From Methanobacteriota archaeon (GTDB taxonomy: Archaea; Thermoplasmatota; Thermoplasmata; SG8-5): DNA of 36,382 nucleotides. The notes beneath the pieces were generated by a model. That model did not search any database, was not told the origin of the DNA, and saw only the letters and a list, made by a program, of their open reading frames with translations. Positions 10,001-31,834 of the stretch are shown here, in pieces. The translations under genes and the position numbers were made by a program. The stretch lies in assembly GCA_013791785.1 (NCBI GenBank), contig VMTD01000052.1, positions 1 through 36,382 of the forward strand, written 5' to 3'. Each line of letters starts with the position of its first letter. The stretch's first letter is position 1.

Positions 10001-10959
10001 ATTGGGATTTGGAGTATTTTAGAATGTTTGATATGACCATTGATTCTGGATTATTTAAGGATAAAGAATGGCTGGAAGAAAATGGATTTTCAAAGAGTTA
10101 TTACGGATCATATGAAGCATCAGATAAACTCTATCTTCCTTTGTTAGAGGGAAAATTGTTTACAAATTATGATCATAGACATGGAACTTTCACTGGAGTT
10201 CCTCGTGAACGGCGGTTTGTTACCAAAGCAATGGCAAAAAGTGTATCATTAGAGCAAAAACAGGATATGAGATTTCAAATCGAAGCGAGATATTGGGTTG
10301 AAGAGAAGGATGTGATTAATCTGTGTGAGAACAAAAATATTCCACAAGATGCTATCTTCTTATTTCGCAATGCTTCGCAACCTATGACAAATGCACGAGT
10401 ATCCATTGGTACTATTGCTCCATTAAGTGCTGCTAGTAATGGTTGCCCTCTCTTTATATTCAGAGGCGAGGATAACACTGAAAGAGCTAAGCGAATGATT
10501 TTATTCACAACTGTATACAATTCTTTACCATTTGATTTTGTATTAAGGCAAAAAATGGCTACTGGAAATATTAATAAATTTATTGTAGCTCAAGTTAGTG
10601 TAGTAAAACCCATTGAATTTCAAAGAATCATTAATCATAAGGGAATCGTGAAGCCAGCAGAAGAATTTGTGTTAGATGTGGCTCCGAATTTTCTTTACAA
10701 TGATGAGTCTTTAACTCCCTTTTTTAAGCATATAGGTAAATCTGAGCCAATAGTATATGATAGTTTAAAGCGAAAAAAAGATATTTGTTTCGTTGATGCT
10801 ATCATTGCTCATTTATATAATCTTAACCGAGAGGAATATGATTATATCCTTTCTCAATTCAATATGATTAAGACAAATGACGAAAATGAATATGGCGAAT
10901 TTTTAACTAAAAGAATGTGTTTATCCTTCTATGATGAAATTGAAGAGGTGATTCCATGA
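7015..10959 (+). CDS. drmMI: N6-adenine DNA methyltransferase, PglX/DrmMI-like
   Basis: A 1314-residue type IIG-like adenine methyltransferase that would mark host DNA for the DISARM-like system. The SAM-binding motif I is DPACGSAAF (503-510) and the catalytic motif IV is NPPW (763-766), the hallmark of N6-adenine enzymes of the Eco57I/PglX group. The ~480 residues before motif I include a DISARM/BREX-type N-terminal region (IVTNGRILRLLRDY). After motif IV, from about 9330, the DNA becomes noticeably richer in A+T than the first half. This C-terminal part should hold the target-recognition domain, and the shift suggests domain exchange. No PD-(D/E)XK motif is evident within the protein. The last codon overlaps the next gene by four bases (ATGA), so the two are translationally coupled. 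A BREX PglX is less likely because PglZ, BrxC and BrxL are absent. Confidence 0.88.
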   Translation: MREKSAFHIHPSGGLLTTQFIDKLKNRDINEPYVKANTFAYDDRPAPNPADLEMLVSKAWIDLLEKWHSVSIFIEKYDASKARMRWIIPLLEALGYEPVFLKSDTLVSNVNDVKIPLSHRGGSWKHAPIIHTVEPGQNLDERPSQKRGIKSPHDDVQIYLNETKEDQWAIVTNGRILRLLRDYHHTYTKGYIEFDLEGIFEERSFSDFYALYRLVHPSRFVPDGDGISPLEHFYKKSLAAGEKIGDDLRENVKSSIELLGNGFLTKELIDKFIEDPEECQKYYQEILHVVYRIMFLMFAEQRGMLPTRGSLYAEAYSITKLRERAEKAKKRDTHKDVWQGLLVTFNMIGQGVEDKRVNIFGYNGGLFDNSKIKTLEKLNCENSHLLQAIRYLTYFEAERTLQRISYVDLGVEEIGSIYESLLDYTPRILSEDVAVDNRTYLARTFFLDPRGAARKSTGSYYTDPRLVNELINSALKPVLEDRLKGKRSRDEKVEALLDINVCDPACGSAAFLIAATNFLGKELAKIRTDTEYPPDKEERIARRDVLQHCIYGVDLNPMAVELAKVSLWINACVSEMPLNFLDYHIKCGNSLIGTTPDLLENGIPDEAFTPVEGDNKGYASEIKTLNKKQKQIKTLDRWEEEEEAVKTDKFDLLKDLPEDSIEDINLKKAEYEKLLANEDYKLDKLLCDTWTSAFFWPLTSESPDPPTARVLDKMYDHGVADVDEGTLELIRKLAEEHRFFHWHLEFPEIFSEDKSGFSCIIGNPPWDKIKLQEKEFFAPYNQEISEASTAAKRKKMIKKLKESEKVNDILLHDTYRLEMKTFENYNHFVRNSGRFPLAGRGDVNTYSVFAELSSQYTNSGGYFGMVLKTGIVSDDTNKYFFQEMVSNRRIDSIYDFINKEKLFPDVGAIERFSLFTCASSLAGPEEFEISVLNENFEDLHNQDKRYRLSFEDIRRMNPNTLTCPLFHKKEDVEICKSMYQKNPVLINETEDNPSNYWDLEYFRMFDMTIDSGLFKDKEWLEENGFSKSYYGSYEASDKLYLPLLEGKLFTNYDHRHGTFTGVPRERRFVTKAMAKSVSLEQKQDMRFQIEARYWVEEKDVINLCENKNIPQDAIFLFRNASQPMTNARVSIGTIAPLSAASNGCPLFIFRGEDNTERAKRMILFTTVYNSLPFDFVLRQKMATGNINKFIVAQVSVVKPIEFQRIINHKGIVKPAEEFVLDVAPNFLYNDESLTPFFKHIGKSEPIVYDSLKRKKDICFVDAIIAHLYNLNREEYDYILSQFNMIKTNDENEYGEFLTKRMCLSFYDEIEEVIP

Positions 10960-16148: not shown

Positions 16149-16334
16149 TTTTATCTTCTAAGTTGTAGTATACCTCTAGATAGCGCCTTTAAATTTCGCA
16201 TAATAGAGATTAGTTTAGTTAATAATGTATGTAGCACCTCTGATAGGCGTCATAGTAGTTTTTAACATGTTGGTTGCTATTTGAATAACGCTTTAAATAT
16301 GGATGAATTATAGTCATCTCCATAAGAGGAAATT
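16149..16334. promoter_or_regulatory. Intergenic promoter region of the SEC-C gene with two similar short elements
   Basis: No gene is visible here. CTTTAAATAT at about 16290-16299 is a TATA-like box roughly 35-45 bases before the GTG/ATG starts of the SEC-C gene. A second TTTAAATTT lies near 16189. Two imperfect copies of a TGTAG-N-ACCTCT-N-ATAG pattern (about 16164-16182 and 16228-16246) may be binding sites. Both are read by eye. Confidence 0.3.
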
Positions 16335-17636
16335 GTGAAGGATAGAGATAATATGACTAAGAAGATTGGTAGAAACAAGCCATGTCCTTGTGGATCCGGT
16401 AAGAAATATAAAAAATGCTGTTTATTACACGATTTAGATAAGGGTGCAGGAACTACAAAAATAACATTGAAAACAATAATCAACGCTGCTAGCTTGCATA
16501 TTTCTACTTTAGAATCTGCAGGTGATTCTACAAAAAGAGTGGTAATTAAAGGTATAGATATGATGAATGGGATTATTGTAGCCACTATAGGACTATATTC
16601 AAAAGATCCTATGGGAATAAAAATTGAATCAGGCCAAATAATTGCTTACCTTTCTAGTCTTTTTGATGGGGAAGATAAGATAGGGGATTTTGGAATTACA
16701 CACTTTGCAGTGAGGGGTATTGATGACAATAACAATGAAATCATGTATGTGGTTTCTTCGAAAGAATCCGCACGTTTTGCTAGAAATGGACAGTCTGTGG
16801 AATGGTTAATGCATTCACTATTTCAAGACAATACCGATGAAACCAGGTTATCTCAAGCTAAGAATATGATATCGAGAGTAGAGAAAGGATTGCGAAATGT
16901 TATAATCCATGTCCTTCAGAATAGAGAGGGGAACGATTGGTGGAACAGTATACATAATAAAAGTAGAAAAAGTGCAGAGAGTGTTTATTCAAACAAATAT
17001 GGAGTAACGACTTTACCAAATGGGGATGAATTAATTGATTACACCTATCTTCCATCTTTAAAAGTCATAATCTTGGAAAACTGGTCTGATTTTAATCATA
17101 TATTCAGGGATGAAAATGATTTTACATCAGATATGGATAGACTAAATATTATCAGGAGAGAGGAGAGCCATAATAGGATAATCAGCCCACCTCTTATTGT
17201 CGAACTTGGAGAGATATACAAACGATTGCTTGGCTTAATTGAACAGGAAATTCCAGGCACAGTTCCACATTTTTTGATTGAGAATTGGAGAAATGAATTA
17301 GCGAAAATGTTTGACAATCTAACAAATAATATGATTGATATTACTGATGAAGACAGAAAGAAACCAATTGTTATGATGGAAAAATTCCAAATAATTAGAG
17401 ACCTCAATTTTGATTTGAGTATCAAATTAAATGGCGTAGTAGTTCCACCAAGTAAGGAAGAGCTACACACGAATTTATCTGGCATTATTACGAAATCGGT
17501 AGCAGCTTTAGATCGAATGAATGCTGCTTCAAAGATAATAAATGTGAAAGAGGTTGAGGAAGCTACTAAAGAGTATGAGAGATGTATGAACGAATTGAAT
17601 AAATTTAAGGAAGTGTATTTATTATCTGAATTATAA
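16335..17636 (+). CDS. SEC-C zinc-motif protein, otherwise uncharacterised
   Basis: A 433-residue protein. Near its N-terminus is GRNKPCPCGSGKKYKKCC, a textbook SEC-C motif (CPCGSGKKYKKCC) that binds zinc and often mediates contact with a protein or nucleic acid partner. The rest is mixed alpha/beta then helical, and I do not recognise a catalytic domain in it. The ORF track starts at GTG 16335, preceded by GAGGA. ATG at 16353 is an equally plausible start and loses only six residues. It lies between the two methyltransferase modules with its own apparent promoter, 186 bases after the helicase gene, so it could serve either one. SEC-C proteins do appear in defence islands, but its role is not established by the sequence. 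Composition is AT-rich like its downstream neighbours. Confidence 0.7.
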   Translation: MKDRDNMTKKIGRNKPCPCGSGKKYKKCCLLHDLDKGAGTTKITLKTIINAASLHISTLESAGDSTKRVVIKGIDMMNGIIVATIGLYSKDPMGIKIESGQIIAYLSSLFDGEDKIGDFGITHFAVRGIDDNNNEIMYVVSSKESARFARNGQSVEWLMHSLFQDNTDETRLSQAKNMISRVEKGLRNVIIHVLQNREGNDWWNSIHNKSRKSAESVYSNKYGVTTLPNGDELIDYTYLPSLKVIILENWSDFNHIFRDENDFTSDMDRLNIIRREESHNRIISPPLIVELGEIYKRLLGLIEQEIPGTVPHFLIENWRNELAKMFDNLTNNMIDITDEDRKKPIVMMEKFQIIRDLNFDLSIKLNGVVVPPSKEELHTNLSGIITKSVAALDRMNAASKIINVKEVEEATKEYERCMNELNKFKEVYLLSEL

Positions 17637-17705
17637 CTTAGTAGAAGAAGTTCCGCAAGAAACAAATAAATACATTTAATAATATGTGGGGTTGAATGTG
17701 ATTAT

Positions 17706-17849
17706 ATGCCTTCAAAAAACGTAACTTTGAATGTCGATGAGGATTTATACAATAAATATCGAAAGTTCTGCAAGAAGAAGGGTTGGATTATTTCTAGACA
17801 ATTTGAGATTATGATGGAATATCAAATGAAGGAGGAAAAGAATCAGTGA
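17706..17849 (+). CDS. Ribbon-helix-helix-like small regulator upstream of the cytosine methylase
   Basis: A 47-residue ORF too short for the ORF track. It starts MPSKNVTLNVDEDLYNKYRK. The pattern (polar basic start, a beta strand VTLNVDEDLY, then helix, turn and a second helix) fits an Arc/CopG-type ribbon-helix-helix DNA-binding protein. Its stop overlaps the GTG start of the cytosine methyltransferase (GTGA), and GGAGG lies 10 bases before that GTG, so the two are co-translated. An autoregulator of the methylase cluster is the natural reading, as R-M operons often open with a controller gene. TATA-like sequence (ATACATTTAATAATA, about 17671-17685) precedes it. Confidence 0.6.
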   Translation: MPSKNVTLNVDEDLYNKYRKFCKKKGWIISRQFEIMMEYQMKEEKNQ

Positions 17850-18925
17850 TTGAGATGGAAAATACCCAACATAAATCCACGCCAAATTTCACTGCAATAG
17901 ATTTATTCTGCGGTTGTGGAGGAGTTACACAAGGACTTAAAAGCCATTTTAAAGTCATTGCCGCAGTAGATAACAATCAGTATGCTTCTGCATCATATGT
18001 TACTAATCATCCAGACGTCCACTTCTTTGAAGAAGATATTACTAAATTAGACCCAACGACAATTCTTCAAGTTGTTGGCGATCAAGACATAGATCTTATG
18101 GTAGTCTGTGCCCCCTGCCAACCGTTCAGCAGTCAGAATAATATAAAAAACTCGGATGAGAGAATGGATTTAATACTTCAGGCAAGTCGTTTCGCGGAAA
18201 TTTTGAAACCTAAATTGATTTTTTTTGAAAATGTTAAGGGCATTATTGCATCTAAACATTCCGGCATTATAAAAACACTTAAAATTGATTTGAAAAAGCT
18301 CGGGTATAAATATTGGCTTGGACCTATCAGCGTTGATGCCGCGGATTATGGAGTACCACAACGTCGACAGAGGTGTATAATGATGGTAACAAATGAGAAA
18401 AAGACACTACCTACCTTACCTAATCCAACCTCGCCGAAAGGCCAACGAATTACCGTGAAAGATGCGATAGGTGACTTACCTTCTCTCTCATCTGGAGAAG
18501 TAAGTGAAAATGATCGGCTCCATTTTGCACGAAAACACAAACCCATCGCTCTTAGGCGATTCGCTTACATAAAAAAAGATGGCGGATCGCGGTTTGACCT
18601 GCCTCCTGATTTGGAATTGAATTGTCACAAAGGACATAAAGGTCACCCAGATGTATATGGTCGAATGACTTGGAACGATGTTGCCCCTACTTTGACTACG
18701 GGATGCACGGATGTGACACGAGGCAGATTCCTACATCCACGTGATGATAGAGCAATCACCATTAGGGAGGCTGCAAGACTTCAAACTTTTCCCGATAATC
18801 ACCAATATGAAGGTTGCCCGTCAGAGATAGCACGTCAGATTGGTAATGCAGTACCTGTGGAATTTGTTCGGACTATCGGACATGCAATTGCCGAATCTTT
18901 GAGGGAATCCAGTCGGAGGGATTAG
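17846..18925 (+). CDS. DNA C5-cytosine methyltransferase (Dcm family)
   Basis: A 359-residue enzyme that transfers methyl from SAM to C5 of cytosine in DNA. All the classic motifs are present in order: motif I IDLFCGCGGVTQGL, motif IV VCAPCQPFSS with the nucleophile Cys91, motif VI ENVKGI, motif VIII QRRQRC, then a short target-recognition region with TLTTGCTDV, motif IX AARLQTFPD, and motif X QIGNAVP. The length is normal and the enzyme appears active. It starts at GTG 17846 overlapping the small upstream regulator, and its stop TAG is immediately followed by the ATG of the MORC/kinase protein at 18926, showing tight operon coupling. It corresponds functionally to the self-marking enzyme of an R-M or DISARM class 2 (DrmMII-like) system. 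Here it is paired with GHKL ATPase and receiver proteins. Confidence 0.95.
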   Translation: MIEMENTQHKSTPNFTAIDLFCGCGGVTQGLKSHFKVIAAVDNNQYASASYVTNHPDVHFFEEDITKLDPTTILQVVGDQDIDLMVVCAPCQPFSSQNNIKNSDERMDLILQASRFAEILKPKLIFFENVKGIIASKHSGIIKTLKIDLKKLGYKYWLGPISVDAADYGVPQRRQRCIMMVTNEKKTLPTLPNPTSPKGQRITVKDAIGDLPSLSSGEVSENDRLHFARKHKPIALRRFAYIKKDGGSRFDLPPDLELNCHKGHKGHPDVYGRMTWNDVAPTLTTGCTDVTRGRFLHPRDDRAITIREAARLQTFPDNHQYEGCPSEIARQIGNAVPVEFVRTIGHAIAESLRESSRRD

Positions 18926-21900
18926 ATGGCAAAAATTAGAGTCAGAGCAAGAGCAGTTGATATGCTTGGTCGGCAACAGATTGCAGGAATCCCGACTGCA
19001 TTACACGAAATTTTAAAAAATGCACATGATGCTTATGCTGATTATGCGGAGGTTGACTACTTCCGACAAGACAAATCGCTGCTTATAAGAGATGATGGTA
19101 TAGGAATGACCAAGGATGAGTTCGAACTGAGATGGCTCACAATAGGTACGGAAAGTAAATTGGAATTAAGTGGAATAATTCCACCTTATCGTGACCCGAA
19201 TAAACCTTTGAGATCAATTCTCGGTGAAAAAGGAATAGGCAGACTTTCCATAGCCGCAATCGGAAAACAGGTTTTGGTTTTAACCAGGGCAGAACGGGAT
19301 GGTGTTTTGCATGACATCGTAGCATGCTTCATACATTGGGGGTTGTTTGAAATTCCGGGTCTTGACCTGAGCGAAATCGAAATACCAGTTGAAACATGGT
19401 CGGAAAATGTTTTGCCCAATCGCAAATTTGTCGACAAATTGGTTGAGAGTGTTCGTAAAAATGTAAATAAACTTGGAAATAAATTTCCTGAAACTACACG
19501 TATTTCTATTCTTCATGATTTGGAAAGCTTTAAAATTGCCCCTGATGTTCTTTCAAAACGGTTAGAAGGATTGTCACTTGCAAATGGACGAGGAACCCAT
19601 TTTTTCATCCACCCCGTGGATTCCATCCTTGAAACAGATATAGATGGAGGTGGGGATACCAAATTATTCGCTCCACCATTAAAGAAAAATCTCATTGGGT
19701 TTTGCAACACCATGACACCCGATGCACCAGTTCCCGCCGTGCGAATCACCTTCCGAGACCATCGAATGGATGGTAGCATACACGACTTAGTCGACCCAGA
19801 TATAGAGTTCTTCACACCCGGCGATTTCAAATCAGCAGATCACCAGTTCGATGGGGTATTCAACGAATTCGGACAATTCGATGGTACAATCTCAATTTAC
19901 GGTGGAAAGCCAATAAAATACGTTCTCCCTTGGAACGGAGCGAGAGGGAAGCCAACAAGCTGCGGACCATTTCGGCTGAAAATGGCGTACGTGCAAGGAT
20001 TGCAAAGAGAATCACGCCTCCCACCAGAGATATATGGCCCAATCACAAACAAACTGAACCAAATTGGTGGAGTTTACGTGTACCGCGACGGAATTCGAAT
20101 TCTACCTTATGGTAATTCAGACTATGATTGGCTGGGTGTAGAACGTCGTCGCAACCTGGCAGCAAAGGATTATTTTTTCAGCTATAGACGCATATTCGGG
20201 GTTGTCGAGATAAAAAAAGAGGCGAATCCTGGGCTTATCGAGAAAGCGGGTCGCGAGGGGTTCATGGAAAATGCGGCTTTCCGCCAAGTGCGAGAATTAG
20301 TCCAGAACTTTCTCGTCGAGGTCGTACGCGAATATTTCCGCAAAGGAAGCAACCTTGCAGATGATTTTTGGCGAATAAAAATTGAACTTGATAGACAGGA
20401 CATACTTCTAAAACAACGTGAGAAACGAATATCGAATAAAAAACAAAATTTTGCTTCTGAACTTGGTAATTTTTTCCAGAAAATTGAGAACTCTAAACCT
20501 ACCTACGAAGTTAACAATATCAAGGACAGTATAGAAGCGAAGCTCAAGTCTGTCAGTGCACAGATAGAAAGCAATCCCGAAGAGGCTGGAAGAATACTTT
20601 TGAAAATTGAGGCAACACTTAGGACAGAAATTGCTGACCTTCGCAAACGATACTCCATCACCCGACCACGAGGGATGGGACTTACCAAAAATCAGCAAGA
20701 TAACTGGAATGCTTACATGAAAGAAGCCGAGGAACTCGAAAATAAACATTTCAAAATATTGGAAAAACATCTGCAAAATGAAATAAACAAAGCTTTCGCA
20801 TCATTATCCAGTTACGTTGACAAACGACGGCGTATCGATCAAATGTTACAAGAGATGAAGAAGCAGACTGAAAGCGATGCAAAACGAATGAGAACGGAAA
20901 CAACCGACGAGGTAAAAAGCCTCCAAGACACAGTCCTCGTTGAAATTAAAGAACATATGGAAGCTTTACAAAATACTTTGAAAGAAACACTGATTGAATT
21001 CGAACAAATGGACCTCTCTACATTATCGGATGCCGAACAAGAAAAATACCAAACAGAACTTGCGCGCAAATTGGAATCTTCTTCTACAAAGGAACTTAAA
21101 GGATTGGAAAGCGTCCGTGACCAACTTACCATGCTTAACGAAGCATTGGCAAACGACGAGTCTATCTCGGATGTGACCATCGCTTTAGAAGAAAGAGTAG
21201 ACTCCTTCAAAAATCAAATTGACCAATATGCTGAATTAGCCCAGATTGGCACCGCAGTTGGCATTGTACAACATGAATTCTCAAGCACTGTCAAAATGAT
21301 GCATGACTACATTAAACAATTACGTGCCTGGGCCGTCACAAATCCCCAAATCGATGAAATATATCAAAATATTCGAATCAATTTTGAGCACTTTGATGAA
21401 TATATGAATGTATTCAAACCATTTGACAGACGGCTCCAGCGTAAAAAAATGGACATACCTGGGCAGGAGATTCGTTATTACCTGCAAAGACTATTCGAAG
21501 ACCGATTGGCACGGCACAACATCAAAATCAAAGCCACACGGAAATTTGATAATGCTATAATATGCACATACCCATCGACAATATATCCGTGCTTCGTGAA
21601 CATAGTAGATAACGCCATATATTGGATTACCAAAGACGCAGAGGGAAGACCTCGAATAGGTGATACTAAAAAAGAAATCCGACTTGACGCGGATGACAAC
21701 GGTCTGTTTGTTAGCAATTCTGGACCTGGCATAAAACGAAGAATAGCCGATCGAATTTTCGATTTTGGTTATTCGGAAAAGAAAAATGGCAGGGGAATGG
21801 GCCTGTACATATCACGCGAAATCCTAAGAAGAGAGGGGTTAGATCTCGTTCTGGAAGAAAGTGGCAAGAACGTGAGACCGATATTCAGAATCGTGTTTGG

Positions 21901-21931
21901 ATCAGGGAAACAGGAGGAATCTGATGAGTAG
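18926..21931 (+). CDS. Dual-GHKL ATPase: MORC/Hsp90-like N-terminus and histidine-kinase-like C-terminus
   Basis: A 1001-residue protein with two separate GHKL ATP-binding modules. The N-terminal one has N-box HEILKNAHDA (27-36), DDGIGM (56-61) and GEKGIGR (100-106), the MORC/Hsp90/MutL-like form. Between about residues 490 and 760 is a long charged coiled coil. From 767, AQIGTAVGIVQHEFSST resembles a HisKA phosphoacceptor helix with His783. It is followed by a kinase-type HATPase_c: NIVDNAIYW (N-box, about 891-899), SNSGPGI and NGRGMGLY (954-961). The gene starts directly after the methyltransferase stop and overlaps the receiver gene by eight bases, so the three act together. MORC-type ATPases linked to Dcm enzymes in R-M operons are known from comparative genomics. 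The combination with a full kinase module is notable. Domain limits are read by eye, and kinase activity is inferred. Confidence 0.8.
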   Translation: MAKIRVRARAVDMLGRQQIAGIPTALHEILKNAHDAYADYAEVDYFRQDKSLLIRDDGIGMTKDEFELRWLTIGTESKLELSGIIPPYRDPNKPLRSILGEKGIGRLSIAAIGKQVLVLTRAERDGVLHDIVACFIHWGLFEIPGLDLSEIEIPVETWSENVLPNRKFVDKLVESVRKNVNKLGNKFPETTRISILHDLESFKIAPDVLSKRLEGLSLANGRGTHFFIHPVDSILETDIDGGGDTKLFAPPLKKNLIGFCNTMTPDAPVPAVRITFRDHRMDGSIHDLVDPDIEFFTPGDFKSADHQFDGVFNEFGQFDGTISIYGGKPIKYVLPWNGARGKPTSCGPFRLKMAYVQGLQRESRLPPEIYGPITNKLNQIGGVYVYRDGIRILPYGNSDYDWLGVERRRNLAAKDYFFSYRRIFGVVEIKKEANPGLIEKAGREGFMENAAFRQVRELVQNFLVEVVREYFRKGSNLADDFWRIKIELDRQDILLKQREKRISNKKQNFASELGNFFQKIENSKPTYEVNNIKDSIEAKLKSVSAQIESNPEEAGRILLKIEATLRTEIADLRKRYSITRPRGMGLTKNQQDNWNAYMKEAEELENKHFKILEKHLQNEINKAFASLSSYVDKRRRIDQMLQEMKKQTESDAKRMRTETTDEVKSLQDTVLVEIKEHMEALQNTLKETLIEFEQMDLSTLSDAEQEKYQTELARKLESSSTKELKGLESVRDQLTMLNEALANDESISDVTIALEERVDSFKNQIDQYAELAQIGTAVGIVQHEFSSTVKMMHDYIKQLRAWAVTNPQIDEIYQNIRINFEHFDEYMNVFKPFDRRLQRKKMDIPGQEIRYYLQRLFEDRLARHNIKIKATRKFDNAIICTYPSTIYPCFVNIVDNAIYWITKDAEGRPRIGDTKKEIRLDADDNGLFVSNSGPGIKRRIADRIFDFGYSEKKNGRGMGLYISREILRREGLDLVLEESGKNVRPIFRIVFGSGKQEESDE

Positions 21932-23723
21932 TTTCGATGAAATGTGCAAAGAAGCGGTCGAGCGATTCATACAAACTGTCGCTATCATCGATGATATGGC
22001 AACATACGATAATAATTCACAATCAGATGATGACAAAGATAAAACAAAAACACTAACACCCCCTGCTAATGGTCTCACGACGGACATCCTTGAACAAGAA
22101 TCTCCATCAACTGAAAAAGGACCTGAAGACAATGACGATAATCTCGGTCAGCTTGATGCAAAGGTTGTGATCAATGCTTTTGCGGATATGGGTATCACAT
22201 GTTGTATCCAACGCCCTAAACACGAGGAGTCATCGTGTGAACGAGCAGTAAAATTGGCAACATCCGCTGATATCCTTGTCCTTGATTGGGTTCTCGATAA
22301 AAAAAATATAACGCTTCCTCGCGACATCATTAAACAGGTAATGAAAGAAGATAAGAGCAAAGGTGGTCGAATGCGACTCATAGTTGTGTACACATCCCAT
22401 AACTATGTCGACCAGATGCTCAAGGACTTAAAAGAAGATGCTGACGATGTATACGATGGCATCCTGAGGATGGACAAAAAACAGCTCACTATAGCAAATG
22501 ATTGTCTTCGAATCGTTATTCTCAATAAAGAAAAAACTAAAAACCCACCTGAAGAAGCTCGAATTGTCCCATTCAGCGATTTACCTAATAATATCATTTT
22601 GGAATACGTCGAACTGATGAAAGGCATAATTCCTGGTGTCACATTACACAGTATTGCTGCTATGAGGGAAAAAACTCATGCACTACTCTCGATATTGAAC
22701 AGAAATCTTGACGGAGCCTATTGTCTGCATCGTGCCTTTCTTCTCGAACCTTCAGACAGTGTTGACTTTGCCATGAACCTGATTACAAGTGAAATTGAAA
22801 CAGTTATTCAATCGGATGCAAAAGCACGGCAATTCGTTGATAGAAACGGGATAAAGGAGTGGTTAATACAAAAAGCAGGTGATGAAAAGAAATTTCCGTA
22901 CTGTAACAGTTCACTTTCGGTAAAAACAATTGAAAATTGTATATTAAATGGGCAACTATCCAAAAAAGAGGAGGTAACGAATATTAAAAAAGAATATGCA
23001 ACTAATTGGATTCAAGCTAAGTATGATGCAGGAGAGATTCTGAAAAATGATGAGGATGAAGACATTACTTTAACAGACGCGAAAAAATATATCAAACAAA
23101 ATAAATTGGAACGTATTAAGGGATGCAAACCTCCTGTAGAAACACGTTTTGCTGAAACATTGTATTCTACATCAAAAGAAGCTATCAATGGGTGCAAAGA
23201 ATTATCGCGTTTAAACTGTACAACTCGGGATACTGTAAGTCGCCCATATATTGATGAACAGCATGGCCCGACTATTAAATTAGGTAGCATTCTTAAAGTG
23301 CGAAAAAAAGACCACAATGATTTAGTTGATGATTGGTTCCTTTGTCTTACTCCACTTTGTGACTGCATACGTTTAGAAAAAGAAGAAAAGGTAGAATTTC
23401 TCTTTTTACATCTTTACCCTGGGAAAAAAGATAACGCAGACATTTACGTTGAGACACAAAAAGGGGAAATTGAACCTCTAGTTTTCAGAGGAAAAAATAG
23501 AAAAATAGAACTATTGACAATTCCATTCTTCCCTGATAAGAATGATCGCATTCGCGCTAAATTTTGTAAAAATAAATGGCGAGTCAAATCTAAAAGGAAA
23601 AATTATCAATGGATTGCTGAACTCAGAAATAACAAAGCTCTAGCAATTGCCCATCATGTTGCGGCTAATACATCAAGGGTAGGTATCGATGAATTTGAAT
23701 GGTTCCGTCGCCAAGCACCATAA
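21924..23723 (+). CDS. Receiver-domain protein with large uncharacterised C-terminal region
   Basis: A 599-residue protein. I choose ATG 21924 over the track's start at 21897 because AGGAGG lies just before it and the domain begins there. The N-terminal ~170 residues look like a response-regulator receiver: TVAIIDDM (Asp23/Asp24 for the acidic pocket), a low-complexity acidic insert (about 30-75), ADILVLDW (Asp121, the likely phosphoacceptor) and LIVVYTSHN (Thr157). The remaining ~430 residues, with a lysine-rich end, are not a standard output domain that I recognise. The start overlaps the dual-GHKL gene by eight bases. Its partner carries the HisKA-like helix, so phosphotransfer from His783 of that protein to Asp121 is the obvious prediction. 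It would make DNA-status or infection sensing a two-component event inside a methylase operon. A pseudo-receiver acting only by binding is the alternative. Confidence 0.72.
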   Translation: MSSFDEMCKEAVERFIQTVAIIDDMATYDNNSQSDDDKDKTKTLTPPANGLTTDILEQESPSTEKGPEDNDDNLGQLDAKVVINAFADMGITCCIQRPKHEESSCERAVKLATSADILVLDWVLDKKNITLPRDIIKQVMKEDKSKGGRMRLIVVYTSHNYVDQMLKDLKEDADDVYDGILRMDKKQLTIANDCLRIVILNKEKTKNPPEEARIVPFSDLPNNIILEYVELMKGIIPGVTLHSIAAMREKTHALLSILNRNLDGAYCLHRAFLLEPSDSVDFAMNLITSEIETVIQSDAKARQFVDRNGIKEWLIQKAGDEKKFPYCNSSLSVKTIENCILNGQLSKKEEVTNIKKEYATNWIQAKYDAGEILKNDEDEDITLTDAKKYIKQNKLERIKGCKPPVETRFAETLYSTSKEAINGCKELSRLNCTTRDTVSRPYIDEQHGPTIKLGSILKVRKKDHNDLVDDWFLCLTPLCDCIRLEKEEKVEFLFLHLYPGKKDNADIYVETQKGEIEPLVFRGKNRKIELLTIPFFPDKNDRIRAKFCKNKWRVKSKRKNYQWIAELRNNKALAIAHHVAANTSRVGIDEFEWFRRQAP

Positions 23724-26167: not shown

Positions 26168-26610
26168 ATTCTCTCCCTGATTTGTGGGACAAATCGTTTT
26201 GGATATAGTCATTGAAGGTCATGCCTAAGCTTGAGGTGACAAACCTCGGGAGTTGATATAATCACAAAGAAAATAACAGTGAAATTTGTAAGATTGGGCC
26301 TCCTCACATGGAAAGATGTAAGATTACAAAAAGGTGCAACTGTTAGAGATTTAAAAAGGGTATTTAAACTAACACAATACTACAATGTTTATAGATGCAA
26401 GACCGAAATCATGTTAAATTATAACCAAGATATTTTCAAATTACTTGAAGAAGGTGAGTTTTTAGAAATTTCTCCCCCATTTATGCTATAATTTCTCTCA
26501 TTCTCTCTCCAATGTTTAGGACAAATTATGCTCAGATATATACTCTATTTTCGCTTATGTTATGAGGGAAAACCTCAGGAGCATGGAAACATGACAAAGA
26601 AAATAACAGC
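26168..26610 (+). repeat. Tandem duplication of Ubl leader and coding start
   Basis: The leader of the first Ubl gene (26168-26278) and that of the second (26499-26608) are homologous. Both contain ATTCTCTC, GGACAAAT, GATATA, AAACCTC or AAAACCTC, a GGGAG/AGGAG ribosome-binding site, and an identical ACAAAGAAAATAACAG block at the coding start. The distance from GGACAAAT to that block is 77 and 75 bases respectively. The duplication therefore covered promoter/leader plus Ubl coding sequence. At the base triplet where the second copy has its ATG (26591-26593), the first copy has ATC (26261-26263). Confidence 0.7.
26279..26491 (+). CDS. Ubiquitin-like (beta-grasp) protein, first copy, start codon altered
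   Basis: At least 70 residues, homologous over its whole length to the Ubl half of the next gene: both show V-K/D-L...T-x-x-D-x-KRV, (Y/N)xVYR, QD, LLEExExLEISP. This is the size and strand pattern of a small beta-grasp ubiquitin-like domain. It ends in LEISPPFML with no Gly-Gly, so canonical activation by E1 is not supported by the tail. The start is abnormal: the homologous position 26261 is ATC, no ATG/GTG/TTG lies in frame between the preceding stop (26237-26239) and GTG at 26279, and starting at GTG cuts into the first strand. A GGGAG site at 26248-26252 still faces the ATC. Either translation begins at a non-standard codon or at GTG 26279, or the copy is decaying. The downstream genes remain intact. 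Confidence 0.65.
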   Translation: MKFVRLGLLTWKDVRLQKGATVRDLKRVFKLTQYYNVYRCKTEIMLNYNQDIFKLLEEGEFLEISPPFML

Positions 26611-27301
26611 AAAAATACTAGGAACCGGAAGCCCGGTAGTGAAGGACCTAAATATAAAAGAAAAAACAACCCCAGCTGATGTGAAAAGGGTGATTAATGT
26701 CCCCCAGACATATCAGGTTTATAGGGTTTCAACAAAGACCTTTCTGAAGGATGGTCAAGATCTTCACGGGTTGCTAGAAGAACATGAAAAATTGGAGATT
26801 TCTCCCGAGTCAGAGTTGGGCTGGCTGGGGGAGAAAATCTCCTCCCTTTTTTTTTCTGTTGAGGAAGAAAACAAGATAGAAGTTACGAACTCATGGTCCA
26901 TGCCCCCGTTGGAAGTTGGCCCACAGCCTTTCAGTTATGTCCAGCCCCCTCAGGCAATGCCCAGGTTGGAAGTATCAGTTGAGCCTGCAGAATTGATTGG
27001 CGCACAAGCGGAAATGGCAAACATTGAGTGGTTCCCAACTGATGAAGGATATGCTGGATTTTACACAACATGGGCGGGGAGGAAATATCAAGGCAAGATG
27101 AGCAGAAAATGGAGCTTGTTTCCACGATATTACATCAAGGATCCCCCACCAAACATTTTCTCTGGAAGGCATAGTCATTGCTTTTCCATAGCTATCGATG
27201 GGTGGTATCATTGTCATTTCGCAAAAGGTGCTGGAAACAATCCACTCACACTAATTCGCAAAGTCGAAGAGTATCTGAACGATACGGAGGTATGCTCATG
27301 A
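26591..27301 (+). CDS. Ubiquitin-like domain fused to an E2-like (UBC-fold) domain
   Basis: A 236-residue protein. ATG 26591 is preferred over the track's 26528 because an AGGAG site sits nine bases before it and the Ubl domain begins there. Residues 1-72 are a Ubl domain like the upstream gene. Residues ~75-140 are a proline-rich linker (QPFSYVQPPQAMP). Residues ~143-232 match the C-terminal half of an E2: LFPRYYIKDPPPNIF, then GRHSHC with Cys197, Trp205 eight residues later, and a final helix (PLTLIRKVEEYL). In classical E2 enzymes the catalytic Cys is also followed by Trp at +8 and preceded by an HP-rich turn, so Cys197 is the best catalytic candidate, with Cys208 second. The stop overlaps the JAB gene start (ATGA). 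It would carry thioester-linked Ubl, but the fused Ubl has no free tail, so it may act as a regulatory or docking domain. Confidence 0.7.
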   Translation: MTKKITAKILGTGSPVVKDLNIKEKTTPADVKRVINVPQTYQVYRVSTKTFLKDGQDLHGLLEEHEKLEISPESELGWLGEKISSLFFSVEEENKIEVTNSWSMPPLEVGPQPFSYVQPPQAMPRLEVSVEPAELIGAQAEMANIEWFPTDEGYAGFYTTWAGRKYQGKMSRKWSLFPRYYIKDPPPNIFSGRHSHCFSIAIDGWYHCHFAKGAGNNPLTLIRKVEEYLNDTEVCS

Positions 27302-27996
27302 AAAAGGAAATCATAGTAGACAAGAAAAAAACCAAAACACTGATTAAAGATTCGAAATCAATACGAAAGGAATTCCTGAGCCTATACACCAAAGCTTGTG
27401 AGGAAGGAAAGGAAGAGGCCGACTTTTTTCACAATGTTTTAAAGCATCTGTATGGAACAGAGCAGCAAATATCCAATATTAGGAAGATGGATGGATTGGA
27501 AGATTCAGAATTTCCTCGATATCTGATGTCATCAAAATTAATCCACGATTTATTCGACTATCTTGTTGAAGATGATGAAATTGAGAAGATGTGCCAATGT
27601 ACTGGGGTTGTGGATGAGAAGACCAATACTATTGTCCCAACAGAAATTCTCAAGCTGGGGATGAGTCAGAGAAGTAGTATTTATGTCAAAGGAGATAGGA
27701 GATCGATAAATAATACTTATTCCCAACTTGATGACTACCTACACTCCATCGTCATTCAGGGACATAGACATCCCGGAAGTGGACCTGGAGCAACACAGCC
27801 ATCAAGCATTGACTTAAGGAACCACAAGGACATGGAGATGTGCTATCCAGTAATTGGAATAATCTTTGTGAAAGGTGGCTATTTCAGATTTTTCAGCTCT
27901 GATGATAAGTTTGAGATAGAGATTTACGGAACGATAAACGGAAAAGAGGTGGTGAAAGTAGATGACAGAACCTACCGTATCCAAGATGTTAATTAG
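27298..27996 (+). CDS. JAB/JAMM-domain metalloprotease (deubiquitinase-like)
   Basis: A 232-residue protein starting at ATG 27298 (ATGA overlap with the E2 gene, CGGAGG seven bases upstream). The track's longer N-terminus overlaps the E2 gene. The zinc-site signature H-x-H...S-x-x-D is visible as QGHRHPG with His156 and His158, then SSID with Ser169 and Asp172. The gap between the second His and the Ser is somewhat longer than in AMSH-type enzymes, filled by a Gly/Pro/Thr insert. An upstream glutamate (Glu116 region) may complete the site. A strand VIGIIFVKGGYFRFF follows. In known prokaryotic Ubl operons, JAB enzymes process the Ubl or remove it from targets. The first ~100 residues are helical and not typical of minimal JAB proteins, perhaps a partner-binding region. 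The E1 gene overlaps its 3' end by 35 bases. Confidence 0.8.
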   Translation: MKKEIIVDKKKTKTLIKDSKSIRKEFLSLYTKACEEGKEEADFFHNVLKHLYGTEQQISNIRKMDGLEDSEFPRYLMSSKLIHDLFDYLVEDDEIEKMCQCTGVVDEKTNTIVPTEILKLGMSQRSSIYVKGDRRSINNTYSQLDDYLHSIVIQGHRHPGSGPGATQPSSIDLRNHKDMEMCYPVIGIIFVKGGYFRFFSSDDKFEIEIYGTINGKEVVKVDDRTYRIQDVN

Positions 27997-28744
27997 GGCT
28001 CCAGGGATGGCCCCCACCGAGATGGGAGAGCAGGATGCTCATGACAGGCATACTTTAATTAATGGATGGAACCAGGATGCTTTGAAGGGTGCTAAGTTAG
28101 TTTTCGTTGGTGTTGGTGGTCTTGGAGGAGAAACCCTTGAAAAGGTGGCCAGACTTGGTGCAAATCATCTTGTATTCTGTGATTTTGATACTATTAATCT
28201 TCATAACATGCATACCCAACCTTTTTATTTAAGCCAGAGGTTCCAAAACAAGGCATTTGGTATGCTTGAAAATCTCAAAAAGGTGTGTACAGCCCCATCG
28301 TTATTAGAAGCATATCCCATGGATTTAGGTAGTATGATAAGAGACTATCCAGACGCCATTAAAGATGCAAACCTAATAGTTTGTCTTGTCGATAACGATG
28401 AAACCAGACGCCAAGCGAGTGAATATGGTTTGGAACACAACATCCCTGTGATATTCGCTGCAGTTTCCAGAACAACACTGAATGGTTATGTATTCATTCA
28501 AAATGGAAGGGCTTGCTTTAACTGCATCAACTCGTTAAAGAAGAACACAAAAGAGGAGTGCCGAGAACCATCTGTGATTTATATCCACACGGCCATTATT
28601 GGCATTGTCACATATGCGGTAGTCTCCCTTCTTATGAACTGGAATATGAGCTGGAATTTCTATGAATTATTCCTTGATAGTGAGTCAAGGGTACTCTTGA
28701 GGGAAAAAAGAGTGGATTGTGAAATCTGTAAGGGGGTGGAATAA
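27962..28744 (+). CDS. E1-like Ubl-activating enzyme (ThiF/MoeB superfamily)
   Basis: A 260-residue adenylating enzyme that would activate a Ubl C-terminus with ATP. It has GVGGLGGE (50-57), the FCDFDTINLHNMHTQ acidic/Asn loop, LVDNDETR, and zinc-binding pairs C185FNC188 and C253EIC256. Cys200 in KEECREPSVIY stands where ThiF/MoeB-type E1s have their thioester cysteine (CR/CxxAGV), so transthiolation to an E2 is plausible. The length is close to MoeB/ThiF (about 250). The start at 27962 overlaps the JAB gene. ATG 27986, 28007 or 28022 are alternatives that would leave the Rossmann core intact. The extra N-terminal ~40 residues are polar. Its linkage to JAB and E2 genes separates it from sulfur-transfer MoeB/ThiF enzymes, though that biochemistry cannot be excluded. 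Confidence 0.88.
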   Translation: MTEPTVSKMLIRAPGMAPTEMGEQDAHDRHTLINGWNQDALKGAKLVFVGVGGLGGETLEKVARLGANHLVFCDFDTINLHNMHTQPFYLSQRFQNKAFGMLENLKKVCTAPSLLEAYPMDLGSMIRDYPDAIKDANLIVCLVDNDETRRQASEYGLEHNIPVIFAAVSRTTLNGYVFIQNGRACFNCINSLKKNTKEECREPSVIYIHTAIIGIVTYAVVSLLMNWNMSWNFYELFLDSESRVLLREKRVDCEICKGVE

Positions 28745-28758
28745 TCGAAGAGGAGATA

Positions 28759-28980
28759 ATGGTCGTGGGTCCAGAAGAGAAGCGGAATTGGCTCTATGGC
28801 TTTTGCCATGTAATCTATCGATTCTTCGCTTGGATTGGGGAGGGGATTCTAGCATGCCCGAACAAGGCATTTTACGCCGTTCTTATCATAATGTGCATCC
28901 TTGCCCCAATCATTGCGATAGTCCTCACAATAGGGCTTCTGTGTGGGATTTACAGGAGGGGAAAGCCATGCCACCAGTAA
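28759..28980 (+). CDS. Small membrane protein 1 of the Ubl operon
   Basis: A 73-residue peptide with one long hydrophobic segment (AFYAVLIIMCILAPIIAIVLTIGLLCGIY), followed by a short RRGKPCHQ tail. The preceding part (FCHVIYRFFAWIGEGILAC) could form an amphipathic or second membrane helix. An AGGAG site sits just upstream of ATG 28759, 14 bases after the E1 stop, and the gene overlaps the next by 13 bases. It has no recognisable domain. Its place between E1 and the ATPase implies a membrane-located step in the system. Confidence 0.65.
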   Translation: MVVGPEEKRNWLYGFCHVIYRFFAWIGEGILACPNKAFYAVLIIMCILAPIIAIVLTIGLLCGIYRRGKPCHQ

Positions 28981-29189
28981 TCCGTCCACAGTCCGACTAT
29001 GATGGCATTGCCTTGATCCTGTCAATTGTATTCTGCTTTGTTCTGGTGTTGATCGGGATTTACTTCGCTGTCGCTGAGGCCTATATCCCGATGATTATCT
29101 GTTTGGTGGCTGGAGCATTCTTTGTCTTCATTGTCTATGGATTGAAAGCTATCGTGGCTTGGTCCAGGCTCCGGAGACCCGAACAATGA
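28968..29189 (+). CDS. Small membrane protein 2 of the Ubl operon
   Basis: A 73-residue peptide (MPPVIRPQSDYDG...) with two transmembrane helices (ALILSIVFCFVLVLIGIYF and IPMIICLVAGAFFVFIVYGL) and a basic C-terminus. The track gives this frame a longer start at 28719, but the added part is only a shadow of the preceding membrane gene, and ATG 28968 follows AGGAGGGGAAAG. It ends with an ATGA overlap into the ATPase gene. Two tiny membrane proteins directly before a HerA/VirB4-type ATPase resemble the small membrane subunits of secretion or conjugation machines, but no homology can be shown by eye. Confidence 0.65.
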   Translation: MPPVIRPQSDYDGIALILSIVFCFVLVLIGIYFAVAEAYIPMIICLVAGAFFVFIVYGLKAIVAWSRLRRPEQ

Positions 29190-31708
29190 AGTCATTCCAA
29201 AAAACTATTAAGATAGCCAAAATCAGTGAATTCAATCCTGTCATTTTTCTCAGAGGGCTAGTGGGTACTGGGATAGGTTGTAATCTTCACGTTTATACGG
29301 GTTCTCAGTCTTATGTTCATTTGTCCACGGTCGGAACTGGATTTTCAATTGTTAAAGCTCTGAAAAGAGCTGAACTCAATCAGAAAATTCTGGAAAGTTT
29401 GCTATACACAGTAAAATTTGAAGAAGTCGATGAGGAACCCGTTATCAGAGCTGGGAAGTGTTCAACATTATTCGAAATTGTTTCTCCTCAATCAATGGAA
29501 TATCAGGAACAATTTCATTTTCTGTGTTCAAGGCTGTTTAGTGCGGGTGTGCCTTGCCATATGATTGTAAAAGTTTCGCCCGTAGCCATTGGTTATGACT
29601 ATTATGAAGATGATACTCTCGGCATGAAATCCAAATCCCCAATAAGTAGCCAGTTACAAAAATTAGAGATAAAAGAGGAATTGGATCTTTTCATGGATTC
29701 AGCCTTCGAGGTAACCTTTGGTGTATTTATAACTGCAAATTCTGACTATCAATTGAAGAGATGGGCTTCAATTGCCTTGAGTTATTTGACCAGTACTTAC
29801 AATATAAACGGTGTTCACAGTCAGTGTATCCAATATGATGGAAAACGCGCTATTGGTGCTTTTAATAGAGTTATGGCTGGCGGTCATCTTAATTCCTCGG
29901 TGATTACTTCGAAGAACCTTGCAGCTTATTTTCAGATCCCCGCAATTGGACCATTAGAGCCCAGAGTAGAGATTGATTTTCCCACACCAGAACTTGGACA
30001 AAATGGCATTAAGCTTGGCAATGTTTTGGCTCCAGACAATGATGTTATGGGAGATGCTATCTTTGACCCCTGCTCAATTTTTGAGCATATTGCAATCTGG
30101 GGGGCAACTGGCACCGGAAAAAGCACCTTGTTAAAACGTATGATTATTGAGCTTCATAACAATGCTGGGCTCCGGTTAATAATCTTTGATTTACATGATG
30201 AATATCGAGAAATTATCAGTCACCTAAACGGTGAAATTGGCAAGGATATCACAATAATAAACCCAATATTACAAAAATTCTCTGTCAACCCCTTGGAATT
30301 GTTCACTCAAGATGCCGTTTCTCGTGATATTGCGGTTGCCGAGAGGACAGAAAATTTCATATCATTGCTTAAACAGGTCTTCATTCTAGGCGAGATACAG
30401 GAAAGCCGGGTTAGAGCCGGAATTTACAGCCTTTACAATTCTGGAACCCCAACCATTGAAGATCTTGTTAAGGTTCTCTTGTCGCAGAAAATTGATAACT
30501 TGTCAGGAAAGCTGATGAAATTTACGAGGGGGTTCTACGGGAATATATTCAATGTGAAAAGCTCCAGTCTTCCGTTTGATAAGTTGGAAACCACAACCAC
30601 AATCTTTGAATTAGGAAGGTTACCCACGGGAATGAGGTGCTTCTTTGTTTCTGTATTCTTGATACTTTGGTGGGATTACAAGCGCAGGAACCGTCCATCT
30701 GAAGCCACGCCCCATGTCATGGTTTTGGATGAATTTCATCATTATTCTGGGCTTTCGGTCATTAATAAGATGCTCTCTGAGGCCAGAAAATACAAGGAGG
30801 GATTGATATGTAGCCACCAAGGACCCAATCAAGTTACGTCCAATAATGTTCTTGATAACCTTGTTCGAAACACCGCTACGAAGATTATATTTCGTCAAGA
30901 ACAGGCAAGTGATAAGCACACGGTTTCAACTGCATTGGGTGGCCTGAGCAAAGAACAGGCCGCATACCTTTCAGTTATGGACGTGGGGGAGGCCATTGTC
31001 AAGCTCAAAGGTGTGAAAACCGCTTTTAGAATTAGAACAGATGATTTCCAGGCTGGTACACCTATTGATGATGATCAGGTAAGACAAATCGTTCTGAATG
31101 ATCAAATGATTACTTCCATTGAGCAATTATCTGATGATGAAATACGGTTTCTTAAGGCCGTTTATGAGCATCCGAGGTCTCGGGTGGCGGATGTATCAAA
31201 AAATCTCAAGATACGTAATTTGGACGGTTATGCCCTATTTAATGGCTTGAAACAAAGAGGTGCGCTCATCGAAGAAACCGTTAAGCATGGCGTTGGAAGG
31301 CCAAAGAACATACTAAGCCTGTCCGTTCAGGCGCACAGGGTGCTTGATTTAGGCAGAAGGAGCGAATCTGCCCACCATGGAGGAACAGAACACATCGAAA
31401 TGGGCAGAAGCATTGCGGATATACTGGAGGCAGACGGCTGGAATTGCCTGATAGAAGACGGATGTGATGTCAAGGCCGAAAGAGATGGTTTTATCATTGC
31501 TATTGAGGTGGAAACAGGCAAGGCAAAGACCCGGTCTCACCTGATTAAGAACCTTGAGAGAGATAGTTGGGCCGATATCATCATCGTGGTTTGCCCGAAC
31601 AAGGTTGATAAACAGGAGATTGAGAAAATTATTGCCCGGAACAATATTGGGAACGTATTTGTCATAACTTATGGAACAGTCGAGAGCATTATGGATTTAA
31701 TTCCTTAG
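29186..31708 (+). CDS. HerA/VirB4-type ATPase with wHTH and C-terminal PD-(D/E)XK-like domain
   Basis: An 840-residue protein. ATG 29186 overlaps the previous stop (ATGA) and is preferred to the TTG at 29159. The first ~300 residues form an alpha/beta region typical of HerA/VirB4/TraC-like ATPases (GVFITANSDYQLKRWAS). GATGTGKS (306-313) is Walker A and HVMVLDEFHH is Walker B, with FDLHDEYREI between them. These ATPases form hexamers that move DNA or protein through membranes or along DNA. Around residues 640-720 is a winged helix-like region (AVYEHPRSRVADVSKNL). The end (about 750-840) reads ADILEADGW, DVKAERDG, IAIEVETGKAKTRSH and IIIVVCPNK, an Asp...Glu-x-Glu pattern like a PD-(D/E)XK nuclease. 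It is the last gene of the Ubl operon. Confidence 0.8.
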   Translation: MKSFQKTIKIAKISEFNPVIFLRGLVGTGIGCNLHVYTGSQSYVHLSTVGTGFSIVKALKRAELNQKILESLLYTVKFEEVDEEPVIRAGKCSTLFEIVSPQSMEYQEQFHFLCSRLFSAGVPCHMIVKVSPVAIGYDYYEDDTLGMKSKSPISSQLQKLEIKEELDLFMDSAFEVTFGVFITANSDYQLKRWASIALSYLTSTYNINGVHSQCIQYDGKRAIGAFNRVMAGGHLNSSVITSKNLAAYFQIPAIGPLEPRVEIDFPTPELGQNGIKLGNVLAPDNDVMGDAIFDPCSIFEHIAIWGATGTGKSTLLKRMIIELHNNAGLRLIIFDLHDEYREIISHLNGEIGKDITIINPILQKFSVNPLELFTQDAVSRDIAVAERTENFISLLKQVFILGEIQESRVRAGIYSLYNSGTPTIEDLVKVLLSQKIDNLSGKLMKFTRGFYGNIFNVKSSSLPFDKLETTTTIFELGRLPTGMRCFFVSVFLILWWDYKRRNRPSEATPHVMVLDEFHHYSGLSVINKMLSEARKYKEGLICSHQGPNQVTSNNVLDNLVRNTATKIIFRQEQASDKHTVSTALGGLSKEQAAYLSVMDVGEAIVKLKGVKTAFRIRTDDFQAGTPIDDDQVRQIVLNDQMITSIEQLSDDEIRFLKAVYEHPRSRVADVSKNLKIRNLDGYALFNGLKQRGALIEETVKHGVGRPKNILSLSVQAHRVLDLGRRSESAHHGGTEHIEMGRSIADILEADGWNCLIEDGCDVKAERDGFIIAIEVETGKAKTRSHLIKNLERDSWADIIIVVCPNKVDKQEIEKIIARNNIGNVFVITYGTVESIMDLIP

Positions 31709-31761: not shown

Positions 31762-31834
31762 ATACTTCCTTTCCCTATGTCTCAGGTTCCTTTCAATTAT
31801 TCTGTAAATGACTACATTTGATGGAAAACTTTAT

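What the first reader, a model, noticed from the sequence alone, without database searches (positions are those of the whole stretch)
26168..31708. Ubiquitin-like conjugation operon joined to membrane peptides and a HerA/VirB4-type ATPase-nuclease
Seen: seven plus-strand genes. From the Ubl-E2 gene onward, adjacent genes overlap by 4-35 bases, except for a 14-base gap before the first membrane peptide. In order they encode Ubl, Ubl-E2 fusion, JAB, E1, two ~73-residue membrane peptides, and an 840-residue ATPase with Walker A GATGTGKS and a C-terminal Asp...Glu-x-Glu region. Known: E1-E2-JAB-Ubl operons (Bil type, type II CBASS, archaeal Caldiarchaeum-like) exist and modify phage or cellular targets. 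Inference: here the conjugation set is tied to a DNA/protein pump, so the Ubl may tag or control a membrane channel or the ATPase. I do not recall this exact gene set as a described system, and that recollection is not evidence of novelty.
Basis: partly seen in the sequence, partly recalled or inferred. Interest (0 to 1): 0.92.

Follow-up and report, generated by a model that had tools for sequence, protein, structure and literature searches.

The report
Archaeal ubiquitin-like operon with DNA-pump ATPase
A little-known group of archaea carries gene sets that look able to attach a ubiquitin-like tag to proteins, placed in one operon with two small membrane proteins and a DNA-pump-like ATPase, and the same set occurs twice in one genome, so the link is probably real and may show how such tags control DNA-handling or defence machines.

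Summary
One plus-strand operon (26591-31708) encodes a Ubl-E2-like fusion, a JAB/JAMM protease, a minimal E1, two short membrane proteins and an 840-residue VirB4/HerA/CedD-like ATPase with a winged helix and a nuclease-like tail. The same six genes, in the same order, occur again in this genome (contig C42) beside different genes. Protein identities between the copies are mostly 22-54%, so this is not a recent duplication. A third relative, in another family of the same order, keeps Ubl-E2, JAB, E1 and a short membrane protein; its contig ends 30 bases into the next gene. Three relatives (two genera, one family) lack the ATPase, but their JAB carries a two-helix membrane anchor.

Corrections: the first "Ubl" gene is a tandem duplicate whose ATG is now ATC and which lacks the terminal Gly. 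The UBC fold of the "E2" was not confirmed. The nuclease is motif-level only.

Best reading: a rare, patchy Ubl-conjugation system that tags and controls a membrane-anchored DNA translocase, probably in defence. The window copy lies beside DISARM/Druantia-like genes. In Sulfolobus, Urm1 is found conjugated in vivo to a HerA-family ATPase from its own gene neighbourhood. New variant of a known kind.

The parts
26258..26491 (+). Tandem duplicate of the Ubl domain (77 codons) with start codon ATG changed to ATC and no C-terminal Gly; probably decayed or not conjugatable
   Evidence: DNA alignment of the two copies including leader and GGAG ribosome-site-like motif; dN/dS about 0.32, frame open by chance with P about 0.001
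26591..27301 (+). Ubl-E2-like fusion (236 aa): ubiquitin-fold domain residues 1-77 ending SPESELG, linker, E2-like domain about 130-236 with invariant C197 and H209
   Evidence: AlphaFold + Foldseek: N-domain = ubiquitin fold; E2-like domain helix-4 strands-Cys-strand-helix but no significant UBC match; invariant residues
27298..27996 (+). JAB/JAMM metalloprotease (232 aa), ExxC..G + HxHP..SxxD motif (E96, H156, H158, S169, D172)
   Evidence: Invariant in six relatives; Prok-JAB PF14464 in 3 of 6 relatives, best E 0.0093
27962..28744 (+). Minimal single-domain E1 (260 aa), MoeB/ThiF type, Zn cysteines 185/188/253/256 and candidate thioester Cys200
   Evidence: PF00899 8.6e-29; C200 aligns with the MoeB Cys at +15 from the first Zn Cys; invariant in six relatives
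28759..28980 (+). TM1, 73-aa hydrophobic membrane peptide, motif IYRFFAxxGExxLxCPNKAFY...CILAPxxAI...LLCGxYRR
   Evidence: 54% identical in the C42 copy, Z = 35; only clean matches in 300 class genomes are the two Ubl operons
28968..29189 (+). TM2, 73-aa hydrophobic membrane peptide, conserved in position and size, hardly in sequence
   Evidence: also in the G011 locus
29186..31708 (+). VirB4/HerA/CedD-like ATPase (840 aa): ATPase core about 292-620 (Walker A 306-313, Walker B DE 515-516), winged-helix-like region about 640-710, nuclease-like tail about 735-840 (D761, E774xE776-TG)
   Evidence: CedD NF053655 6.6e-22, VirB4 TIGR00929 6.5e-21, DUF87 6.5e-13; alignment with the C42 copy
4111..23723 (+). 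Neighbouring defence island (DrmD, DrmMI, DruE-like helicase, SEC-C protein, 5mC methylase, HEF_HK kinase, receiver); context, not part of the operon
   Evidence: PADLOC/Pfam: DrmD 4e-134, DrmMI 7e-99, DruE 2e-125, MTase 1e-89

Best explanation
The operon encodes a reversible ubiquitin-like conjugation cascade that controls the DNA-handling machine encoded at its end. JAB would free the Ubl from the Ubl-E2 precursor after Gly77. The minimal E1 would adenylate it and take it onto Cys200, and the E2-like domain would pass it from Cys197 to a local target: TM1/TM2 or the ATPase. JAB would later remove it. TM1 and TM2 anchor the VirB4/CedD-like ATPase at the membrane. There it would translocate DNA, and possibly cut it with its C-terminal domain, when foreign DNA enters or leaves. 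The biological role would be defence against viruses or conjugative elements, or control of DNA exchange. SHOWN: gene set, its recurrence, Ubl fold, E1 family, JAMM motif, VirB4/CedD-type ATPase, hydrophobic peptides, defence-island context of the window copy. INFERRED: E2 activity, Ubl processing and target, DNA translocation and cleavage, defence role.
For: Same six-gene order in two diverged operons of one genome, in different surroundings. Identities: TM1 54, E1 49, JAB 43, Ubl-E2 38, ATPase 22-23%. In G011, Ubl-E2-JAB-E1-TM peptide is followed at once by TAA-ATG of a further gene cut by the contig end. TM1 gave clean matches nowhere else in 300 genomes. Relatives without the ATPase carry a two-helix anchor on JAB, so membrane attachment is a shared theme. 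Free Ubl versions end SPEAKFG-A/R-stop, placing the Ubl end at the Gly. Patchy presence (5 of 400 genomes) and the DISARM/Druantia-like island fit a defence gene. Experimental parallel: Urm1 attached in vivo to HerA/FtsK/TrwB protein Saci0667, highlighted by the Urm1 gene context (PMC4569737); a Urm1/HerA-like ATPase operon was described earlier (PMC2948915).
Against: The E2 fold is not confirmed. The ATPase is absent from three of six loci. The C42 ATPase is closer to a mobile-element ATPase (C58) than to the window's, so the slot may have been filled twice. No VirB6-like channel, relaxase or pilin was seen in the operon. TM2 hardly aligns between copies. No target or activity is known. Defence evidence is contextual only; the copies in the other family (f19) sit next to metabolic genes.
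Confidence: 0.5

Rival explanations
1. Two modules share an operon but not a mechanism: TM1-TM2-ATPase is a small mobile-element or T4SS-like cassette that travels with the Ubl cassette inside defence islands, and the Ubl cascade modifies other targets (for example viral proteins, as in Bil).
For: ATPases of the two operons are only 22% identical and the C42 one is closer to the C58 mobile-element ATPase near a recombinase; relatives of the Ubl cassette exist without the ATPase; a tyrosine recombinase lies directly upstream of the G011 copy.
Against: Short overlaps between genes, the same order in two surroundings, and TM1 found cleanly only in these operons.
Confidence: 0.27
2. The E2-like domain is not an E2. 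It is another Cys-containing fold, and the E1 transfers the Ubl directly (as in SAMP/Urm1 systems) or the Ubl-E2-like fusion is only an adaptor.
For: No Pfam, PDB-profile, Foldseek or profile-profile match of the domain to UBC.
Against: Invariant Cys with an invariant downstream His, PP-F-H-C pattern and helix-four strands-helix order; gene order Ubl-E2-JAB-E1 as in described bacterial operons; separate Ubl and E2-like ORFs in f19.
Confidence: 0.13
3. A DNA-exchange (Ced/Ted-like) import device whose assembly is timed by the Ubl system; no immune role.
For: Best NCBIfam match of both ATPases is CedD (6.6e-22, 7.5e-28); CedD is needed for DNA import in Saccharolobus (PMC11868833).
Against: No CedA/VirB6-like protein or pilin in the operon; extra nuclease-like tail; defence-island context.
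Confidence: 0.1

Closest known systems
Bacterial Ubl-E2-JAB-E1 operons of Iyer et al. 2006 rows 6d/6e (Bil, Bub; 'multiubiquitin - E2/UBC - ThiF(JAB-E1) - DUF6527' plasmid loci L060-L071)
   Same: Ubl, E2-like protein, JAB and E1 in that order; occasional Ubl-E2 fusion (L070, L071); patchy, mobile distribution
   Different: JAB and E1 are separate genes here; E1 keeps Cys200 (no Cys aligned there in the 6e E1s checked); no DUF6527 in the operon; adds TM1, TM2 and a VirB4-like ATPase; E2 homology not demonstrated
Sulfolobales Urm1 locus with HerA-like ATPase (arCOG00540/arCOG00286; Saci0667)
   Same: A Ubl gene beside a membrane-associated HerA-superfamily ATPase; a HerA/FtsK/TrwB protein from the neighbourhood is a conjugate in vivo (PMC4569737, PMC2948915)
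   Different: No dedicated E2 or JAB reported in that locus; the locus there is ribosomal/thermosome context, not defence
Ced system ATPases CedB/CedD and T4SS VirB4
   Same: Same ATPase family accompanied by small membrane proteins
   Different: No CedA/VirB6 channel seen; winged helix and nuclease-like tail added; Ubl enzymes in the operon
Caldiarchaeum subterraneum ubiquitin operon
   Same: Archaeal Ub, E1, E2 and JAMM protease together
   Different: That one has a eukaryote-like E2 and a RING E3; here the E2-like domain shows no sequence match to UBC and no E3 is in the operon
Type II CBASS Cap2/Cap3 and 6A-MBL
   Same: E1 core homology (PADLOC E1-E2 5e-13, Cap2 in PDB)
   Different: No CD-NTase; E1 not fused to E2

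Membership tests
Bil (BilABCD) / row 6d operons | Gene order Ubl, E2, JAB, E1 | tested here: met
   Ubl and E2-like fused in three loci, separate in three
Bil (BilABCD) / row 6d operons | E2 with catalytic Cys and invariant downstream His | tested here: inconclusive
   C197 and H209 invariant (BilB C138/H151 per PMC11354881), but no fold or profile match
Bil (BilABCD) / row 6d operons | E1 with inactive plus active adenylation domains and a Cys domain | tested here: not met
   E1 is one 260-aa ThiF/MoeB-like domain
Bil (BilABCD) / row 6d operons | BilA with two tandem Ubl domains | tested here: not met
   one Ubl domain per intact protein
Row 6e / multiubiquitin-type operons | JAB fused to E1, DUF6527 partner | tested here: not met
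   JAB and E1 are separate genes; no DUF6527 match in the operon
Row 6e / multiubiquitin-type operons | Homologous E2/UBC-like domain | tested here: inconclusive
   hhalign probability about 0.1% on shallow alignments
E2 (UBC) superfamily | UBC fold | tested here: inconclusive
   AF2 pLDDT 79, pTM 0.70; no PDB match better than E = 0.67
JAB/JAMM proteases | E + HxH + SxxD metal site | tested here: met
   E96, H156, H158, S169, D172 invariant; weak Prok-JAB hits
E1/ThiF superfamily | ThiF fold, adenylation residues, catalytic Cys | tested here: met
VirB4/CedB/CedD ATPases | FtsK-HerA P-loop ATPase of VirB4/CedD type | tested here: met
   CedD 6.6e-22, VirB4 6.5e-21, both below NCBI's equivalog/subfamily cut-offs
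Type IV secretion / Ced-Ted apparatus | VirB6/CedA polytopic channel and pilin | tested here: not met
   no such gene in either operon; TM1/TM2 have no significant family match
Caldiarchaeum-type ubiquitin operon | eukaryote-like E2 and RING E3 in the operon | tested here: not met
   no UBC Pfam match; RING gene at 32531-32983 is on the other strand and absent near the relatives
Anti-phage defence system | protects against phage or plasmid | not testable with these tools
   context only

The most novel reading that the evidence does not exclude
A previously undescribed archaeal system in which a dedicated E1-E2-Ubl-JAB cascade, tethered to the membrane, switches a T4SS-derived DNA translocase-nuclease on and off by covalent tagging: ubiquitin-like control of a DNA pump, used in immunity against incoming or outgoing DNA.
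Probability: 0.35. Interest if true: 0.9.

Novelty: new variant of a known kind. Interest (0 to 1): 0.74.

Why it matters
Prokaryotic ubiquitin-like operons are the proposed ancestors of eukaryotic ubiquitin signalling, yet their targets are mostly unknown. Here the gene order itself names a likely target: two membrane peptides and a DNA-pump ATPase encoded in the same operon. If true, it would link archaeal Ubl conjugation to DNA transport and defence. It would also help explain why Urm1 modifies a HerA-family ATPase from its own gene neighbourhood in Sulfolobus.

Tried and rejected
ATPase search of genome contigs with the single sequence: no relatives. JAB, E1, Ubl-E2 and ATPase searches of viral contigs: none, apart from one generic E1. 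JAB, E1 and Ubl-E2 against plasmids: no match at the limits used. ATPase against phages: one generic hit.

UBC fold test by AlphaFold + Foldseek: no significant match. Profile comparison with ten bacterial E2/UBC domains gathered from plasmids: not significant. PDB profile searches with the JAB and E2-like alignments gave only chance hits.

Idea that TM2 or TM1 split off from the JAB-borne hairpin of the other relatives: shuffle scores too weak. Idea that the winged-helix/RING gene downstream is the E3: it is on the other strand and not near any relative. Idea that the first Ubl is simply a seventh gene: set aside because its start codon is lost.

In one search the row L029 is a wrong ORF and should be ignored. 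The other genomes' ATPase hits (L033-L037, L043-L056) were taken as HerA-like repair or element ATPases from their weak partial scores; only two of these loci (L043, L044) were read.
Full report
1. What is there. The window is contig C142 of a 2.62-Mb genome whose sampled class relatives include records titled Thermoplasmata and Methanomassiliicoccales archaeon. From 26591 to 31708 on the plus strand six genes follow one another: Ubl-E2-like fusion, JAB, E1, TM1, TM2, ATPase. Overlaps are 4, 35, 13 and 4 bases, with one 14-base gap before TM1.

2. The first "Ubl" gene. The stretch 26258-26491 aligns at DNA level with the start of the Ubl-E2 gene, including its leader and GGAG motif, but the ATG is ATC and the end is ISPPFML without Gly. 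Its frame has dN/dS of about 0.32 against the other copy and is free of stops (P about 0.001 by base composition), so it was a real gene for long; whether it is still expressed is open. The second operon has no such gene.

3. The second operon. Contig C42 of the same genome (locus L009) carries Ubl-E2, JAB, E1, TM1, TM2 and ATPase in the same order on its minus strand. Identities are 38, 43, 49, 54, about 15 and 22-23%. The flanks differ: TIR-domain, HNH-like and GIY-YIG-like genes there, a large restriction-type island here. This is the strongest evidence that the two halves belong together. TM1, aligned from both copies, gave clean matches only to these two operons in 300 class genomes; one further hit was marginal and interrupted by a stop.

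4. Other relatives. G011 (same order; named record Euryarchaeota archaeon NC_groundwater_1944, L015) has Ubl-E2, JAB, E1 and a 65-aa two-helix peptide. Directly after its TAA an ATG opens a frame that is cut by the contig end about 30 bases later. Three genomes of another family (G053, G025, G162; records L014, L017, L016) have Ubl and E2-like ORFs separated by a stop, a JAB with an N-terminal two-helix membrane anchor, E1, and then a winged-helix gene instead of the ATPase (the winged-helix gene was read in G053 and G162). Searches of these four genomes with the ATPase profile gave only weak HerA-type hits. In all, JAB relatives were found in 5 of 400 class genomes and not in the plasmid or viral collections. 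The E1 tree groups the window, C42 and G011 apart from the other family (support 0.95).

5. What the proteins are. Ubl: AlphaFold model of the fusion, N-terminal domain matches ubiquitin with Foldseek probability 1.00 and rmsd about 1.7-2.0 A. E1: ThiF family, single domain, with two CxxC zinc pairs and C200 at the position of the MoeB/ThiF reactive cysteine (alignment; that this is ThiF C184 is from established knowledge), invariant in six relatives. JAB: complete JAMM residues, invariant, weak Prok-JAB matches. ATPase: CedD, VirB4 and HerA models match both copies, CedD best at 6.6e-22 and 7.5e-28, PDB HerA 5e-12. Its C-terminal D...ExETG region is conserved between copies but unidentified; calling it a nuclease is inference.

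6. The E2 question. The E2-like domain has invariant G, W, P, F, C197, GW, H209 and P. Its predicted order is helix, four strands, short helix, Cys, strand, helix. A conserved His after the Cys is what Iyer et al. noted for row 6d E2s (PMC1779556), and BilB has C138/H151 (PMC11354881). But Foldseek found no significant UBC match, Pfam none, PDB profiles none, and a profile comparison with ten bacterial E2/UBC domains collected from plasmids was not significant. All alignments are shallow. E2 is therefore likely from context, not shown.

7. Mechanism. The Ubl end is marked by relatives whose free Ubl stops one residue after FG, so JAB processing after Gly77 is the natural reading. E1 and the E2-like domain then load it. 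The gene order suggests the target is the membrane/ATPase set. In Sulfolobus acidocaldarius Urm1 conjugates were found in vivo on a HerA/FtsK/TrwB protein, Saci0667, highlighted by the Urm1 gene context (PMC4569737), and a Urm1/HerA-like operon had been predicted earlier (PMC2948915). CedD is required for DNA import in Saccharolobus (PMC11868833). Together these favour a Ubl-controlled, membrane-anchored DNA translocase. The neighbouring DrmD, DrmMI, DruE-like and methylase genes, the patchy distribution and the recombinases nearby favour a defence role. Against this stand the ATPase-free relatives, the possibility that the ATPase slot was filled twice (C42 ATPase closer to the mobile-element ATPase of C58), and the absence of any activity data.

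8. Comparison and verdict. Filed under prokaryotic Ubl-conjugation operons as a new variant. It is not Bil (E1 lacks the double adenylation domain; one Ubl per intact protein), not row 6e (JAB and E1 separate, no DUF6527), not Caldiarchaeum-like (no UBC Pfam match, no RING in the operon), and not a complete T4SS (no channel, pilin or relaxase in the operon). I found no description of this gene set in the paper library, which lacks most subscription journals, so prior description cannot be excluded.

Noticed in passing
window 4111-23723: Large defence island mixing DISARM-like (DrmD, DrmMI) and Druantia-like (DruE-type helicase, cytosine methylase) genes, followed by a GHKL/HEF_HK kinase and a Response_reg_2 receiver.
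   Followed up: partly
window 32531-32983 (-): 150-aa winged-helix-like protein with a Prok-RING_1-like zinc finger, 0.8 kb from the Ubl operon on the other strand; no relative near the other Ubl operons.
   Followed up: partly
window 26258-26491: Tandem Ubl duplicate with ATG changed to ATC but a conserved ribosome-site-like motif and an open frame under past purifying selection; possibly a non-canonical start.
   Followed up: partly
L011, L012, L013: In another family JAB is fused to a two-helix membrane hairpin and the operon continues with a 253-292-aa winged-helix protein (HxlR-like) plus a divergent 127-aa paralogue instead of the ATPase.
   Followed up: partly
L026:10768-12852: A third VirB4/HerA-like ATPase with winged-helix and nuclease-like tail in the same genome, near a tyrosine recombinase and a DNA-methylase-like gene; no Ubl genes.
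   Followed up: partly
L009:1571-2164, 4477-5393: Around the second Ubl operon: TIR-domain protein, HNH-like and GIY-YIG-like small nucleases; the TIR and HNH-like proteins had no PADLOC match.
   Followed up: partly
window 35539-36039: Macro-domain protein (PF01661, 6e-48) at the end of the window.
   Followed up: no
window 31808-32032: AbrB/MazE-like antitoxin-type regulator directly after the ATPase gene, no toxin partner seen.
   Followed up: no
L070:2155-3303, L071:2236-3297: Bacterial plasmid operons with Ubl and E2/UBC domains fused in one protein, a parallel to the archaeal fusion.
   Followed up: partly
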